This document shows, in pieces, positions 4,699-14,149 of a stretch of DNA of 64,000 nt. Both the position numbers and the translations under genes were made by a program. This DNA is from Kordiimonas laminariae. Its GTDB lineage: Bacteria; Pseudomonadota; Alphaproteobacteria; Sphingomonadales; Kordiimonadaceae. How positions within the stretch are numbered: the first letter of the stretch is position 1; each line of letters opens with the position of its first letter. The DNA is taken from contig NZ_JAKQZA010000004.1 of the NCBI RefSeq assembly GCF_023008165.1, positions 124,001 to 188,000 on the forward strand. The letters run 5' to 3'. Below the pieces are notes generated by a model, which searched no databases, was not told the origin of the DNA, and worked only from the letters and a program-made list of their open reading frames with translations.

Positions 4699-4725
4699 AG
4701 AATAGTGGCACGAGGGGGCCGAGTT

Positions 4726-5538
4726 ATGACAGAGACAAATCAAAACCTGAAAAATGCAGCAGAAACCGTGGGAGTTATCAAGGCTAATGCAGAGGCTGTA
4801 AATGCCGCATCTAAAGCCAGAGTTACGTTTATTGAAGAACTGGTATCCCAATCAGAGCGTATAACTGCAAGTGTTGCAGGTATTGAAGGTAATGCTAGAG
4901 AAAACTATGACGTTCTTGAAGGAACATCCAGTGAAGTTCGTAATATCGTCGATGATGTGCAGCTAGTTATTAATGCTCTTAAATCCAGTTTAGATAACGC
5001 CCAACGAATGGCTTCGGCTCTTCAAGCCTTTGAGCAGCGGTTTGAGCGGGTAGGGCTGATTTCAGATGAAATCACAGCCATCGCCAAGCAAACGAATATG
5101 CTGGCTCTAAACGCGATGATTGAAGCAAAACGGGCTGGTGAAATGGGGTTAGGCTTTGCGGTTGTTGCTCAGGAAGTTAGGGACCTGGCTAGCAGTACAA
5201 GCCAATCTGCCAATGAAATTAGCGAGCTATCGAACGAGCTTACAGGTGGCATTGATGCGATGGTTGCAGATTGCAGCAGTCTGCAAACCAGCATGTCTGA
5301 TAGCGTTGCGACGGGAGATAATAACCTCTCACAAATTGCAATGATTGGTGAATGTATTGATCGTGCGGTGAGCCAGTCTTCCCAAACTGCTGAAGAAGCA
5401 TCCAGCCAAAGCAGCGAGTTTGCTTCACTGGTTGGGCATTTAGGGCAGCTTAAAGCAGATACAGAGGCTGCAATTGCAGGTTCGGCAAAAAATATCAGGT
5501 TAGCTGAAGGTGTTTTGAAAGCGCTGCAAAATGATTAA
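4726..5538 (+). CDS. Soluble methyl-accepting chemotaxis signalling protein
   Basis: A 270-residue chemoreceptor-type protein without any membrane segment or recognisable sensor domain. The MCP signalling hairpin tip lies at about residues 113-157: [21 protein letters not shown] then [13 protein letters not shown]. This is close to the consensus, but Met, Met and Lys replace the usual Leu, Thr and Ala. The rest is predicted coiled coil. ATG 4726 is preferred over GTG 4705 because GAGGGGG sits 7 bases upstream. It probably shares a transcript with nrtS, which suggests that it reports on intracellular nitrate or energy state, but that link is inference from position only. Confidence 0.82.
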
Positions 5539-5697: not shown

Positions 5698-5738
5698 CAC
5701 CTATTAGCATATTACACTAATAGGTGCAATTAATTGCA
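5698..5738. promoter_or_regulatory. Two palindromes upstream of the GG-leader peptide gene
   Basis: Within the AT-rich 383-base gap before the peptide gene are an inverted repeat CACCTATTAG (5698-5707)/CTAATAGGTG (5717-5726) with perfect 10-base arms and a 9-base spacer, and, overlapping its end, a perfect 14-base palindrome TGCAATTAATTGCA (5725-5738). Both look like operator sites for dimeric regulators. The first could also fold in RNA, but no T run follows. Confidence 0.5.
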
Positions 5739-5813: not shown

Positions 5814-5921
5814 ATGACAATGGCGATTTCAAATGTGTACTTATGCACAGTGAGGCGCTTGCTCGTGGGGATATCCCCATCACTTATTAGGAAATTCTAT
5901 TTCCGCATGATGGAGGCATGA
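5814..5921 (+). CDS. Possible 35-residue upstream ORF coupled to the GG-leader peptide
   Basis: An open frame of 35 codons whose TGA (5919-5921) directly abuts the ATG of the peptide gene at 5922. It begins at ATG 5814 with GGA five bases upstream, a weak ribosome site. The product would be a basic, hydrophobic peptide (ends IRKFYFRMMEA) with no family I recognise. The abutting stop and start suggest translational coupling, but the peptide gene has its own strong GGAGG inside this frame, so the ORF may be fortuitous. Confidence 0.25.
   Translation: MTMAISNVYLCTVRRLLVGISPSLIRKFYFRMMEA
5866..5879. promoter_or_regulatory. Perfect 14-bp palindrome before the peptide gene
   Basis: TGGGGATATCCCCA is a perfect palindrome 43 bases before the peptide start. 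It may be an operator for a dimeric regulator; no regulator of known specificity is nearby to test this. Confidence 0.4.
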
Positions 5922-6152
5922 ATGATTATTCAAGAATTGAAATACGATGAAACTAATCTGGTTGCAGGTGGTTGCCCACTAGACCTTCGGGATAGTGGCA
6001 TTTCCGCAGAAGATGCGGCGGAAATTTGTCGTGAACTAGAGAGAACGCAGCCGCGTAGCCCTGGTGGGGGGAGTGTAGAAGGAACGTCTGGAACGAAGGT
6101 TTACACCGCTACACGTATTCCTCGAGGAGAGCCTGATCCAGAAATTCCATAA
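5922..6152 (+). CDS. Double-glycine-leader peptide precursor (bacteriocin/RiPP-like)
   Basis: A 76-residue protein with an N-terminus (IQELKYDETNLVAGG) that follows the double-glycine leader pattern (E-L, acidic E at -8 region, V-x-G-G) used by C39-peptidase ABC exporters. Cleavage after Gly17 would release a 59-residue peptide beginning CPLD, with two cysteines (Cys18 and one near residue 36), a GGG stretch and a proline-rich acidic tail. A strong GGAGG lies 5 bases upstream and a clear terminator follows, so this is a monocistronic gene. No exporter, modification enzyme or immunity gene is recognisable nearby. I do not recognise a family for the mature part; antimicrobial or signalling roles are inference. 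Confidence 0.6.
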   Translation: MIIQELKYDETNLVAGGCPLDLRDSGISAEDAAEICRELERTQPRSPGGGSVEGTSGTKVYTATRIPRGEPDPEIP

Positions 6153-6175
6153 AACAGCTATTTGGTAATGAATTG

Positions 6176-6210
6176 AGGTCGGAGTAGATTTTATGCTCTG
6201 ACCTTTTTTT
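6176..6210 (+). terminator. Rho-independent terminator of the GG-leader peptide gene
   Basis: AGGTCGGAG (6176-6184) pairs with CTCTGACCT (6196-6204) over 9 bp with one G-U, followed by seven or more T. Confidence 0.85.
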
Positions 6211-6370
6211 GCACATGCCCCAAAATACAGAGAGGCATGTGTAAATTGTTTGACTTTTTGCCCAATCAACTATATGCACGCTCGATCAATGAATGGGGAA
6301 GCCAATTGGTGGCACGCCCCGCGCAGACAACATGGTCTGTGGCGCTTAATAATGAAGGAAGCGATTCGAT

Positions 6371-6982
6371 ATGACTAAACGTATTCAAGCGAAATACAAA
6401 ATTGACCGCCGTATGGGCGAAAACATCTGGGGCCGCGCTAAGTCTCCAGTAAACACTCGTGAATATGGCCCAGGTCAACACGGTCAGCGCCGTAAGGGTA
6501 AACTTTCTGACTTCGGTATCCAGCTACGTGCTAAACAGAAGCTAAAAGGTTACTACGGTAACATTCAGGAAAAACAGTTCCGTCGCTACTATGATGAAGC
6601 TGTACGTCGCAAAGGCGATACAGGTGAGAACCTGGTTGGTATTCTAGAATGCCGTCTAGACGCTCTTGTATACCGCGCGAAGTTTGTTCCGACAGTGTTC
6701 GCTGCTCGTCAATTCGTAAACCACGGCCACGTTCTTGTTAACGGTCAGCGTTGTAACATCCCATCACGCATGGTTAAGCCTGGTGATGTAATTGAGATCC
6801 GCGAAAAAGCGCGCCAGATCCCAATGGTTATCGAAGCTGCTGGTAGCCCAGAGCGTGAAATTCCTGAGTATGTAACAGTTGAAGGTGCTAAAGCTACTTT
6901 CGTACGCGTTCCTACTCTTGATGAAGTTCCATACCCAGTAATCATGGAACCGAACCTAGTGGTGGAATTCTACTCTCGTTAA
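6371..6982 (+). CDS. rpsD: 30S ribosomal protein S4
   Basis: The 203-residue primary 16S rRNA-binding protein that nucleates assembly of the small subunit 5' domain. It is full length: the N-terminal S4 domain ([25 protein letters not shown]) and the S4 RNA-binding fold ([31 protein letters not shown], shown here only as its span around residues 95-125) are present. AAGGAAG lies 9 bases before ATG. Codon use is visibly more biased (CGT, CTT, GGT) than in neighbours, as expected for a highly expressed gene. It is monocistronic, away from the alpha operon, which is the usual alphaproteobacterial arrangement. Confidence 0.98.
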
Positions 6983-7410: not shown

Positions 7411-9660
7411 ATGTTAAATCTAAAGCAGCTGAACATCTCTGTTCGGCTACCGTTAGTCATCTCTATTATTGTGATCATCACAAGTGGTGTAGTTTCCTTC
7501 TCTGCTTTCTTAAGTGCAGGGAACGAAGTTGAGGCACAGGTGCAGGACCGACTGGAAGCGGTACTTGTTTCAAGAAAATCAGAACTTGGTACATACTTGG
7601 CTTCTATTCAGGAAGACCTGAAGCTTGTTGCAGAGAACAGTAATACACTCAATGCACTCAAGGCTTTCTCTGATGGTTGGGCGCAGTTTGATGGTGCAGC
7701 AGAAGAAGAACTCCAGCGCTTATATATTCAGGATAATAAGCACCCGACTGGTGAAAAAGACAAACTGTATGATGCGCTTGATGGGTCAGCATATAGTGAA
7801 GCGCATGCAAAACATCATCCCTGGTTCCATGCTCTACAGCAGAGCAGGGGATATTATGATGTTTTCCTGATTAACCCAGAGGGCGATCTCGTTTATTCGG
7901 TTTTCAAGGAACTGGACTATGCAACAAATCTGGTATCCGGAAAATGGCGGGCATCCGATTTAGGCAACGTTTTTAGAGATGCGGCAAACATGAGCCGGGC
8001 ACAGGATGTTTTTTATGATTTCCGTCCGTATGCTCCTAGCCACGGTGCTGCAGCAAGTTTCATTGCGCGTCCTATCTTTGATGATGGTGGCGTACTGGCT
8101 GGTGTACTGGTTTTCCAAATGCCGATTGAGCGTATCGATGGGATCATGCAGAAAAGCGAAGGTATGGGAGAAAGCGGTGAGACCTATATCGTCGGCACCG
8201 ATAATCTTATGCGTTCGAATTCTCGGTTTTCTGAAGAATCTACGATTCTCGACCCGGAAAAGCGTGTTGTTGGGGCAACGGTTTCCGGCGCTTTAGCTGG
8301 AAGAGCTGGCCTTGAAGTTGTTGAGGATTACCGAGGCATTGATGTTGTCTCAGCCTATACTCCGATTGAATTCCTTGGAACCAAATGGGCGTTGCTCGCT
8401 GAAATTGATGTAGCAGAAATGCGGCAACCGGTGAACAGTCTTGCCTGGATGATGTTAGGGCTTGCCGTTTTCATTTCAGTTTTAATGGCGGTGGTAAGCA
8501 CCTATTTTGCCAGAGGTATCACAAAACCCATCAATGAAATGGTTGGCGCGATGGGTAGCTTGGCTGACGGGGACAATACGATTGAAGTCCCTCGTCAGGA
8601 GCTGACTGATGAAATAGGCCATATGGCTAAAGCTGTTAACGTGTTCAAGCAGAACTCTATAGAACGCCATCGTCTTGAAGCTGAAAGCAAGGCTGCTGAA
8701 GAGGCAAGAGTTCAAGAAGAACATGAACGGCAGGAACGAGAAGCTAAAAGACGTGAAGAAGAACTCGAGCGGCAGCGCGAGGAAGCTGAAGAACGCGAAA
8801 AACGCATCATTGAGATGACAGAGTTGATCTCTAACTTTGATGTAACAACGGGAGAGCTTCTTAAAACGGCGTCATCGGCTGCAACTCAGCTTGAAAGTAC
8901 GGCTCAGTCCATGAGTGGTACAGCAGGGCAAACCAATGAACAGTCTGCAACTGTCGCGTCAGCGGCTGAAGAAGCCACGGTTAACGTACAAACCGTGGCC
9001 AGCGCTACAGAGGAATTGAGCGTTTCTATCGCTGAAATCGGTGAGCAAATCAAACGCTCGAATGAAGCGAATAGTGCGGCAGCAGGTAAGGCAGATGAAG
9101 CTGGTACGGTAATGCAGCAATTAAGTGATGCATCCCAGTCGATTACTGACGTAGTGAAGCTCATCAACGACATTGCAGAGCAAACGAACTTGTTGGCGCT
9201 GAACGCCACCATCGAGGCTGCCCGGGCGGGGGATGCTGGTAAAGGATTTGCTGTTGTGGCAAGCGAAGTGAAATCGCTTGCGGGTCAAACAGCACAGGCA
9301 ACTGAGCAAATTGAAGAGCAAATTCAATCTGTTCAGGAAAAAACGACCATCGCAGCAGGATCAATGAGCCAGATTCAGGACGCTGTAACCATGACAAGTG
9401 AGCTCGCCTCGGCTGTCTCTTCCTCTGTTGAAGAGCAAGGGATTGCTACCGAGGAAATCGCCCGCAACGTACAGGAGGCTGCAGCGGGCACCAATGAAGT
9501 GAACATAAACATTTCACAAGTTGCGCAGGGAGCTGCCGACACTCAGGCAGCGTCTTCTAAGGTGCTGAGTGCATCACAGGAAGTCGCGCGGGTGTCGACA
9601 CATTTACAAACATCTGTAGAGCAGTTCCTGAAGGACGTAAGGCGTGTAATGGAACAGTAA
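7411..9660 (+). CDS. Membrane methyl-accepting chemotaxis protein with periplasmic Cache-type sensor
   Basis: A 749-residue chemoreceptor. TM1 is at about 13-35, a roughly 300-residue periplasmic sensor with a Cache-like PAS fold ([31 protein letters not shown]) follows, TM2 is at 344-366, HAMP at 367-420, then a highly charged E/R-rich coiled coil (about 425-465) and the MCP signalling domain with hairpin tip at 588-625 ([34 protein letters not shown]). It signals through CheA/CheW to the flagellar motor. The start has GAAGGGTGA upstream. A TorF-type porin follows after 28 bases and probably shares the transcript. Ligand unknown. Confidence 0.92.
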
Positions 9661-9688
9661 TTTCCCTAGTTAAAACAGGAATATACTT

Positions 9689-10408
9689 ATGAAACTTCAT
9701 CAGAATACTAACCGTAATGCTGTATCTAGTAAAACAACCTTAGGTCTTTTCGCGTTCGCTCTAGGTGTATTTTCAGCGCCAGCTTTGGCGCAAAACTCAG
9801 GGAATGATTTTTCATTTTCCGGAAGTGCTACCTTTGTGAGCGATTACAGGTTCCGTGGTCTTTCTCTGTCAGACAAAGATTTTGCAATTCAGGGTGGATT
9901 GAACCTTAACCATAAAAGCGGCTTTTACGTAAGCACATGGGCTTCTTCCATTCAGGAGTTCGCGGGGTCAGAAACCGAACTCGATCTCTATGGTGGATAT
10001 AGCGGGTCAATCGGCAACCTTTCCACAAATGTTGGTATAATTGCTTATATTTATCCGGGGTCTGATAACACCACATATTATGAGGTTTATGGGTCTGTAA
10101 GCGGTACCATGAAGAATATTTCATGGACACTGGGTTCGGCATATGCGTGGGATCAGAATAATATCGGCGGGCAGGATAACATCTATGTTTACCTGAGTGG
10201 TAGTAGGCCATTTGGCAATAGCGGGTTCTCAGTAAATGGGTATATAGGCTATGAAGACGGCGCGTTTGGTACCGATAAATGGGATTGGAACGCGGGGCTT
10301 TCCTATAGCTTCCAGCGGTATACCCTCGGGGTTTCCTATGTGGACACCAATACCGGAAGTGGTACGGGGTCGGCAGGTGTAATTGCCTCTATATCAGCAA
10401 GCTTTTAA
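9689..10408 (+). CDS. TorF family putative porin
   Basis: A 239-residue outer-membrane beta-barrel protein. A signal peptide ends at about residue 34 (APALAQ), and the TorF-family signature follows: FVSDYRFRGLSLSD, AIQGGLNLNHKSGFYVSTWASS and TELDLYGGY. Alternating aromatic/polar strands and a terminal Phe, the BAM recognition residue, support an outer-membrane barrel. It is preceded by AGGA 8 bases before ATG and lies 28 bases after a chemoreceptor, so the two may be co-expressed, perhaps linking solute uptake to sensing (inference). A terminator follows. Confidence 0.85.
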   Translation: MKLHQNTNRNAVSSKTTLGLFAFALGVFSAPALAQNSGNDFSFSGSATFVSDYRFRGLSLSDKDFAIQGGLNLNHKSGFYVSTWASSIQEFAGSETELDLYGGYSGSIGNLSTNVGIIAYIYPGSDNTTYYEVYGSVSGTMKNISWTLGSAYAWDQNNIGGQDNIYVYLSGSRPFGNSGFSVNGYIGYEDGAFGTDKWDWNAGLSYSFQRYTLGVSYVDTNTGSGTGSAGVIASISASF

Positions 10409-10436
10409 AGCAATAACTTTGCTGAATATTATTGAA

Positions 10437-10475
10437 GCTAACACGGCAAACAAAATTGGGCTGTGTTAGCTTTTT
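10437..10475 (+). terminator. Rho-independent terminator after the porin
   Basis: GCTAACAC (10437-10444) pairs with GTGTTAGC (10463-10470), followed by TTTTT. Confidence 0.85.
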
Positions 10476-10758
10476 ATATGCATATGATTGATATGAATGG
10501 GAATGCAGAGGGTTAACTAATAGCTGTGCTTAGTTCCGAAAGTTCGTAGTGAGTGATCATGTGTTCGATGCTCATAGAGCTTACCACTAAATCTGACAAA
10601 ATGCCGCCCAGCCGTATCTATATAGAATTCGGCTTTATTTGTTTTAACGATATTGCAGGAGTGGATTAATCAGTTGCATTGAAGGCCAAGACTATTTAGG
10701 CAATTTTAATATATTCTACATAGGGTTGGTTGGGATTTTTTATTAGGTGTTGAAGTAT
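10476..10758. other. Intergenic stretch without recognised features
   Basis: About 280 bases of AT-rich sequence between the porin terminator and the methyltransferase gene. It must carry the promoter of the latter, but I see no hexamer pair that I would defend. Confidence 0.5.
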
Positions 10759-11919
10759 ATGATGAAATTTGAAAAGTGTGTTGTCTGCGGGGAGGCGGAT
10801 TTTGAGGTTCTGAAATCTGTGGAATGGCAGATTACAGGGCAGGGAACTTTTAAGTTAAATTTCTCTATTTGTCGGACTTGCGGGCAGGTTGCCCAGAATC
10901 CATTTCCAACTATGGAACAGGTTGAAACGTTCTATTCGGAGAATATCAACTACCACTTGCCGAATTTTGTTGCCGAATTACCAGAAGAACCTTTTTCCAC
11001 CAGATTGAGAATTCGGGATGCGTTGAGGAGGTTCAAACCTGAAAAGGGTAAGGTGTTAGAGATTGGTTGTGGATCAGGTGAAAATTTATTTTACCTCCAA
11101 AAGGATGGCTGGGATTCATATGGCTGTGAACCATCACCACATTGTAGCGAAAAGGCGATTGAACGTTTAGGGAAAGAGAAAGTTTCCGTAGGTTTCTCCC
11201 ATGATATAGATATCCCTGAAGTTTCTTATGATGCGGTGTTTATCTCCCATGTTATCGAGCATGTGAGAGACCCAAAAGGCATAATGCGACAAGCGATGAA
11301 CGCTGCGAAAGATGATGGCGTTATCATTTTTGAAGTACCATGTACGCGGCAGCCGCACCGGTTGATGCCGGGCTGGTTAAGCCTTGAACATATTCTCTAT
11401 TTCTCAGCAGGTACCATTAGTAGACTGGCAGAAGAATGCGGCCTTGAAATTGTTGAAACCATTCTGGATGATGAATATCACCTTTACCCGGCCGTATGTA
11501 TTATCTGTAAAAAAGCATCGGCAAAAGTTGTTCATAATCATTTCAATGAGTATGAGCTGAATAAGCATATCGTGAATGAATTCCTTAAAGCGGATAAAGC
11601 TCATTGGGATGGTGTAGCGAAAAAACTTGAAGGTATTTCAGAAGCTTATATCTATGCAGCTGGTAACCACACCTCCCAGCTTCTTTTCGAAACCGGGTTT
11701 GCAGATAAGGCAAATATCATCAATATTGTTGATAGCAGCCCAATCAAGGAAGGGATGTCCCTTGGGAAGCATAAGGTAATCAGCCGTCAACGTTTTCAGG
11801 AGCAGTATAAAGGTGAAAAGGTTGTTGTCGTTTCCTATTTCTCAGAAGCGGAAATCGCAAAATCCCTTGCCGAGCTTGGTGTGAAAGAAGAAAATATCGT
11901 TCGGCTTTATACAGGCTAA
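10759..11919 (+). CDS. Class I SAM methyltransferase, sugar C-methyltransferase type
   Basis: A 386-residue protein in three parts: an N-terminal zinc-binding module (CVVC at residues 7-10 and CRTC at 38-41), a central Rossmann methyltransferase with the SAM loop VLEIGCGSGENL at about 99-110 and HVIEHVRDP, and a C-terminal domain of about 150 residues (AAGNHTSQLLF, NIVDSSPIKEGM). This order is typical of the NDP-sugar C-methyltransferase group. The start is uncertain: ATG 10759 or 10762, or GTG 10747, none with a strong ribosome site. No other sugar genes are adjacent, so a substrate cannot be named. Confidence 0.82.
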   Translation: MMKFEKCVVCGEADFEVLKSVEWQITGQGTFKLNFSICRTCGQVAQNPFPTMEQVETFYSENINYHLPNFVAELPEEPFSTRLRIRDALRRFKPEKGKVLEIGCGSGENLFYLQKDGWDSYGCEPSPHCSEKAIERLGKEKVSVGFSHDIDIPEVSYDAVFISHVIEHVRDPKGIMRQAMNAAKDDGVIIFEVPCTRQPHRLMPGWLSLEHILYFSAGTISRLAEECGLEIVETILDDEYHLYPAVCIICKKASAKVVHNHFNEYELNKHIVNEFLKADKAHWDGVAKKLEGISEAYIYAAGNHTSQLLFETGFADKANIINIVDSSPIKEGMSLGKHKVISRQRFQEQYKGEKVVVVSYFSEAEIAKSLAELGVKEENIVRLYTG

Positions 11920-11971
11920 TATAGATTGAATGAACCCGGTGTTGTCGTTGTCGCTGCACCGGCAAATATAA

Positions 11972-12051
11972 GGGCACGGTTTTGGGCATACGCTGTATTA
12001 TGCCACTAAAAATGCAGAAAAAGGGCCAACCCTGTGCCCAAAACTGTGCCC
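11972..12051. repeat. Long inverted repeat between methyltransferase and thiC
   Basis: Left arm GGGCACGGTTTTGGGCA (11972-11988) and right arm TGCCCAAAACTGTGCCC (12035-12051) are complementary over 17 bases with a single G-U/mismatch and a 46-base spacer. No T run follows. It could be a terminator, a structured RNA or the remnant of an element end. The bases from 12052 to the riboswitch show nothing else recognisable. Confidence 0.6.
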
Positions 12052-12183
12052 CTCTCTATGCCCCCGTTGGGTATCTTCCATAATGCCGTTTCTGCTCAAT
12101 CTGGTATTTTCCTGAAAAGTGAACCGAAACTGCTTGCGTGCGGGCGCGCCCCCGCGTAAACCTGTTCCACACACAACGTGTTC

Positions 12184-14149
<1,966 letters not shown>

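What the first reader, a model, noticed from the sequence alone, without database searches (positions are those of the whole stretch)
5922..6152. Orphan double-glycine-leader peptide with strong translation signals and its own terminator
The leader (IQELKYDETNLVAGG) fits secretion by a C39-peptidase ABC exporter, and the predicted 59-residue product starts with Cys and holds two cysteines. No exporter, modification or immunity gene is near. An unlinked exporter, or an unrecognised role such as signalling or contact inhibition, is implied.
Basis: partly seen in the sequence, partly recalled or inferred. Interest (0 to 1): 0.6.

Follow-up and report, generated by a model that had tools for sequence, protein, structure and literature searches.

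The report
Unlinked double-glycine peptide with distant exporter
The small gene is real and encodes a peptide carrying the export tag of double-glycine (microcin/bacteriocin-like) peptides; the matching exporter, with sibling peptides, lies on another contig of the same genome, so this is a scattered member of a known kind of peptide-secretion system whose final function is unknown.

Summary
ORF 5922-6152 (76 codons) has a GGAGG ribosome site, a leader ending in GG at residue 17, a 59-residue product with Cys 1 and 19, and a strong terminator at 6175-6205. The leader is far beyond chance: 26.2 bits against a model built without it, the only ORF at 8 bits or more in the window, and none at 16 or more in 2.56 Mb of random DNA.
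The implied unlinked exporter exists. The genome (Kordiimonadaceae) has exactly one C39-peptidase ABC exporter, on another contig, with an HlyD adaptor and four double-glycine peptides whose leaders share I/F-x-E-L/I...V-x-G-G/A with this one. A leader HMM trained without the window peptide finds it (E=3e-4) plus a second unlinked precursor. Across 30 genomes of the family, such leaders occur in 10 of 14 with a C39 exporter and 0 of 16 without.
In the sister species a 76-residue peptide with the same GG|CP junction sits inside the exporter operon.
Best reading: an unlinked, species-specific substrate of this exporter, secreted as an acidic, hydrophilic, probably unmodified peptide. Microcin membership is not shown: no immunity gene, activity untested. 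Signalling or antagonism cannot be decided here.

The parts
5922..6152 (+). double-glycine precursor peptide, 76 aa (leader 1-17, core 18-76)
   Evidence: ORF; leader PSSM 26.2 bits; leader HMM E=3e-4 in own genome; relative in sister species' exporter operon
5922..5972 (+). leader MIIQELKYDETNLVAGG, predicted C39 cleavage after GG
5973..6149 (+). 59-aa core, Cys at core positions 1 and 19, pI 4.6, GRAVY -0.77
5912..5916 (+). Shine-Dalgarno GGAGG
   Evidence: sequence
6175..6205 (+). intrinsic terminator
5698..5726 (+). perfect 10-bp inverted repeat with 9-nt spacer, unique in the genome; candidate operator (inferred)
5866..5879 (+). 14-bp palindrome TGGGGATATCCCCA upstream of the gene; possible regulatory site (inferred)

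Best explanation
The gene encodes an unlinked precursor of a small secreted peptide. The ribosome makes the 76-residue precursor. The C39-peptidase ABC exporter encoded at G000:C21 recognises the leader (I-x-E-L-x3-E-x3-V-x-G-G), cuts after GG and, with its HlyD adaptor and presumably a TolC-type outer-membrane channel, exports the 59-residue acidic core (two cysteines, possibly one disulfide). The same exporter serves four precursors beside it and at least one further unlinked precursor (C24:159010). Shown: the ORF, its translation signal and terminator, the leader match, the single exporter, its conserved peptidase residues and the exporter-leader co-occurrence. Inferred: cleavage and export in trans, disulfide formation, regulation. 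The most likely role is a bacteriocin- or microcin-like competition peptide or a related secreted effector, but this last step is not shown.
For: The window leader scores 26.2 bits with an independent PSSM and no random control reaches 16. A leader HMM made from 14 exporter-locus leaders finds the window peptide at E=3e-4 as the best non-training hit in its own genome, followed by a second unlinked precursor at E=0.0024 that is followed by an Rce1/CPBP gene. All six G000 precursors share I/F at -15, E-13, L/I-12 and V-4, and the window's unusual T at -7 recurs in the exporter-linked precursor L002:12424-12564. One C39 exporter in the genome, with HlyD adaptor, C39, TMD and ATPase domains; peptidase Cys, His and Asp align with solved PCAT peptidases such as 6mpz. 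Family-wide, leader hits occur in 10/14 genomes with C39 and 0/16 without, Fisher p=3e-5; without training genomes 4/8 vs 0/16, p=0.007. The sister species G016 has a 76-aa peptide MKIEEMKIDEMSKVVGGCPHGLVDG... between its HlyD and exporter genes, BLASTP E=6e-7 for the single comparison. The core shares an ED-A-rich stretch with exporter-linked peptides and, with the G000 exporter-linked peptide, the motif RIPR (shuffle p 0.0014 and 0.013, not corrected for about ten comparisons).
Against: No transcription, proteomic or secretion data. No close homologue of the whole peptide in any collection searched, so selection on the core cannot be measured. The core-core match to the sister CP peptide is not significant on its own (p=0.59): the similarity there is leader plus the first core residues. 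No consensus promoter was found. No immunity gene. The TolC-type channel was not searched for. The assembly is in 27 contigs, so linkage distance to the exporter is not known exactly.
Confidence: 0.8

Rival explanations
1. More specific reading of the function: it is a class II microcin/bacteriocin, and the secreted core kills or inhibits related bacteria.
For: Leader type, C39 exporter and HlyD adaptor match the published microcin export machinery (PMC9746304). The exporter locus and the second orphan precursor are each followed by Rce1/CPBP-type genes, a type associated with bacteriocin immunity from general knowledge.
Against: No immunity-type gene is linked to this peptide. The core is acidic (charge -4.2) and hydrophilic (GRAVY -0.77) with only one short helix predicted at low confidence. 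No similarity to known bacteriocin families in Pfam, NCBIfam or PDB.
Confidence: 0.4
2. More specific reading of the function: it is a secreted signal peptide used for communication within the species.
For: Solo gene with its own terminator and palindromic elements upstream, no immunity gene, hydrophilic acidic core. Gram-negative double-glycine peptides have been proposed as pheromones (Michiels 2001 and Dirix 2004, cited by title in PMC9200625).
Against: No receptor or regulator is linked to it; the core is long for a pheromone; such a role for Gram-negative double-glycine peptides is largely unproven (own knowledge).
Confidence: 0.3
3. It is a modified peptide (RiPP), with enzymes encoded elsewhere and the exporter acting as the terminal protease.
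For: Core holds Ser, Thr and Cys; scattered precursors served by one modifying enzyme are known for prochlorosins (PMC10783134).
Against: No LanC-like protein in the genome. The only SPASM protein lies beside transketolase-like and methyltransferase-like genes and looks unrelated. No modification gene at the exporter locus. YcaO was not tested.
Confidence: 0.08
4. It is a silent relic of a precursor, left after its locus was reshuffled.
For: Species-specific; the sister species has a YHS-domain ORF in the same slot; the sister exporter locus shows remnants of reshuffling, a truncated C39 gene start.
Against: Intact ORF, good ribosome site, leader intact at the key positions, strong terminator.
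Confidence: 0.12
5. The ORF is a chance reading frame with no gene.
For: Small; no close homologue in any collection.
Against: Leader score without parallel in random sequence, positional match from the start codon to GG, RBS, terminator, independent HMM hit.
Confidence: 0.02

Closest known systems
Double-glycine leader peptides of Gram-negative bacteria exported by C39 ABC transporters (class II microcin-type export; survey in PMC9746304)
   Same: Leader motif EL-x3-E-x3-V-x-G-G, C39 ABC exporter and HlyD adaptor in the genome, small cysteine-containing product.
   Different: Precursor on another contig from the exporter, no linked immunity gene, acidic hydrophilic core, alphaproteobacterial host.
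Prochlorosins (scattered precursors of marine picocyanobacteria, PMC10783134)
   Same: Several precursor genes scattered through the genome and presumed to share one processing machinery.
   Different: Prochlorosins are lanthipeptides modified by LanM; no LanC-like enzyme here, and only about six precursors.
G016 exporter-linked CP peptide (L101:7959-8189)
   Same: 76 residues, related leader, same GG|CP junction and L-x-D after it, two cysteines, acidic core.
   Different: Inside the exporter operon; rest of the core not significantly similar; second Cys at core position 16 rather than 19.

Membership tests
C39-exported double-glycine leader peptide | Short N-terminal leader with L-12, E-8, hydrophobic -4 and GG/GA at the cleavage site | tested here: met
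   published motif quoted in PMC9200625; position -7 is T instead of I/L, as also in exporter-linked precursor L002:12424-12564
C39-exported double-glycine leader peptide | C39-peptidase ABC exporter with catalytic Cys/His/Asp in the same genome | tested here: met
C39-exported double-glycine leader peptide | Precursor actually cleaved after GG and exported | not testable with these tools
   needs protease assay or mass spectrometry
class II microcin | HlyD-type membrane fusion protein in the genome | tested here: met
   L002:8591-9838, PF13437 over cut-off; TIGR01843 E=5e-40 but below its curated cut-off
class II microcin | Cognate immunity protein gene near the precursor | tested here: not met
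   neighbours are MCP and rpsD; only a 35-codon upstream frame of unknown meaning
class II microcin | TolC outer-membrane channel | not tested
   not searched
class II microcin | Antibacterial activity of the core | not testable with these tools
   needs an assay
lanthipeptide | LanC-like cyclase in the genome | tested here: not met
   PF05147 no match

The most novel reading that the evidence does not exclude
An alphaproteobacterium runs a dispersed repertoire of fast-changing, unmodified double-glycine peptides through one exporter; the solo members without immunity genes, like this one, are secreted signals or effectors rather than bacteriocins.
Probability: 0.25. Interest if true: 0.55.

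Novelty: new member of a known kind. Interest (0 to 1): 0.37.

Why it matters
It shows that searching only beside exporters misses part of the precursor set: in this genome and its sister, leader-based search found two unlinked precursors each. The pair of species, with the peptide type inside the exporter operon in one and elsewhere in the other, gives a simple deletion and mass-spectrometry test of export in trans and of what solo double-glycine peptides do.

Tried and rejected
Homologues of the whole peptide: none in genome contigs, 20 genus genomes, phages, plasmids or viral contigs. A 301-genome order search with the sister CP peptide gave no convincing hit outside G016 (the others fall in long or broken frames); in G000 the sole hit was the window peptide, E=0.09. 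Pfam, NCBIfam, PHROGs and PDB: nothing for the peptide. Structure prediction: mean pLDDT 54, pTM 0.22, one helix at residues 29-42, too poor for a fold search. RiPP reading: no LanC-like gene; the SPASM protein looks unrelated. Search for the upstream inverted repeat elsewhere: unique in the genome, so no shared regulon seen. No Rfam RNA at the locus.

Full report
Observation. It lies between a gene with an MCP signalling domain (4705-5538) and rpsD (6371-6982). Nothing exporter-, modification- or immunity-like is adjacent.

Is the leader more than chance? I built a position matrix from 25 leaders of peptides near C39 exporters in relatives, leaving the window peptide out. The window peptide scores 26.2 bits, at the low end of the training range (23.0-37.4), with cleavage predicted after residue 17. 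It is the only ORF in the 64-kb window scoring 8 or more; 40 Markov copies of the window gave none at 16 or above.

Is there an exporter? Yes. PF03412 finds one C39 exporter in the genome, at G000:C21:491183, on a different contig from the window. The locus (L002) reads HlyD adaptor 8591-9838, double-glycine peptide 9928-10122, C39-ABC 10148-12367, three further double-glycine peptides 12424-12564, 12627-12815 and 12860-13009, and an Rce1/CPBP membrane protein. The peptidase residues Cys, His and Asp align with solved PCAT peptidases. Relatives with named records place the genome among Kordiimonas-type Kordiimonadaceae (the G018 contig length equals that of an uncultured Kordiimonas record).

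Do the leaders belong together? An HMM of 14 exporter-locus leaders, without the window peptide, was run on the genome. It found its four training members, then the window peptide (E=3e-4), then a second unlinked precursor at C24:159010, MSGQIQELTFDEIDSVTGA|RGKLC..., followed by an Rce1/CPBP gene and near a tRNA-Glu. All six G000 precursors share E at -13, L/I at -12 and V at -4; the window's T at -7 recurs in one exporter-linked precursor. Across 30 genomes of the family, leader hits occur in 10 of 14 genomes with a C39 exporter and in 0 of 16 without (p=3e-5). Leaving out the genomes that supplied training leaders it is 4 of 8 against 0 of 16 (p=0.007). These genomes are related, so the p-values are optimistic.

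What about the sister species? G016 has the same MCP and rpsD flanks (91-96% DNA identity) but a YHS-domain ORF in place of the peptide. In its exporter operon it carries a 76-residue peptide MKIEEMKIDEMSKVVGGCPHGLVDG... (L101:7959-8189), followed by a truncated C39 gene start and two peptides of the type that precedes the G000 exporter. The match to the window peptide (E=6e-7 as a single comparison) covers the leader and the first seven core residues; the rest of the core is not significantly similar. The window core shows a weak likeness to the other exporter-linked type: an E-D-A stretch followed by an acidic helix-like segment, and the C-terminal motif RIPR (p 0.0014 and 0.013, uncorrected). 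I take the leader link as firm and the core links as suggestive. G016 also has two unlinked precursors of its own (L182, L183).

Mechanism. The best-supported account is export in trans: the C21 exporter cuts the leader after GG and secretes the 59-residue acidic core. The exporter, the leader match and the co-occurrence are shown; cleavage, export and disulfide formation are inferred. Whether the product is an antagonist or a signal is open. Absence of an immunity gene and the acidic hydrophilic core argue mildly against a pore-forming bacteriocin. No LanC-like enzyme exists in the genome, and the one SPASM protein sits in an unrelated-looking neighbourhood, so an unmodified product is likely.

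Known context. Scattered precursors sharing one processing machinery are known, clearly for prochlorosins (PMC10783134), and the leader motif and export machinery match published descriptions (PMC9746304, PMC9200625). This is therefore a new member of a known kind. Calling it a class II microcin is not justified: no linked immunity gene was found and activity is untested.

Noticed in passing
window 5814-5921: In-frame 35-codon ORF (MTMAISNVYLCTVRRLLVGISPSLIRKFYFRMMEA) whose stop TGA directly precedes the peptide's ATG; could be a coupled upstream frame, a tiny partner protein or chance.
   Followed up: partly
window 5698-5726: Perfect 10-bp inverted repeat, unique in the genome even at 3 mismatches, in an AT-rich upstream region; also palindrome TGGGGATATCCCCA at 5866-5879.
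   Followed up: partly
L161:1492-2262 (G000:C24:159010): Second unlinked double-glycine precursor, followed by an Rce1/CPBP-type gene and near a tRNA-Glu.
   Followed up: partly
L101:8190-8358 (G016): Truncated start of a C39 exporter gene between peptide genes, a sign of recombination in the exporter operon.
   Followed up: partly
L018:753-1280 (G016): YHS-domain ORF occupies the slot between the MCP gene and rpsD in the sister species.
   Followed up: no
window 6244-6330: Upstream region of rpsD conserved with the sister species (87.5% over 88 nt), perhaps an rpsD leader; no Rfam match.
   Followed up: no
L182 and L183 (G016:C1:798859 and C1:3482577): Two further unlinked double-glycine precursors in the sister species.
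   Followed up: partly
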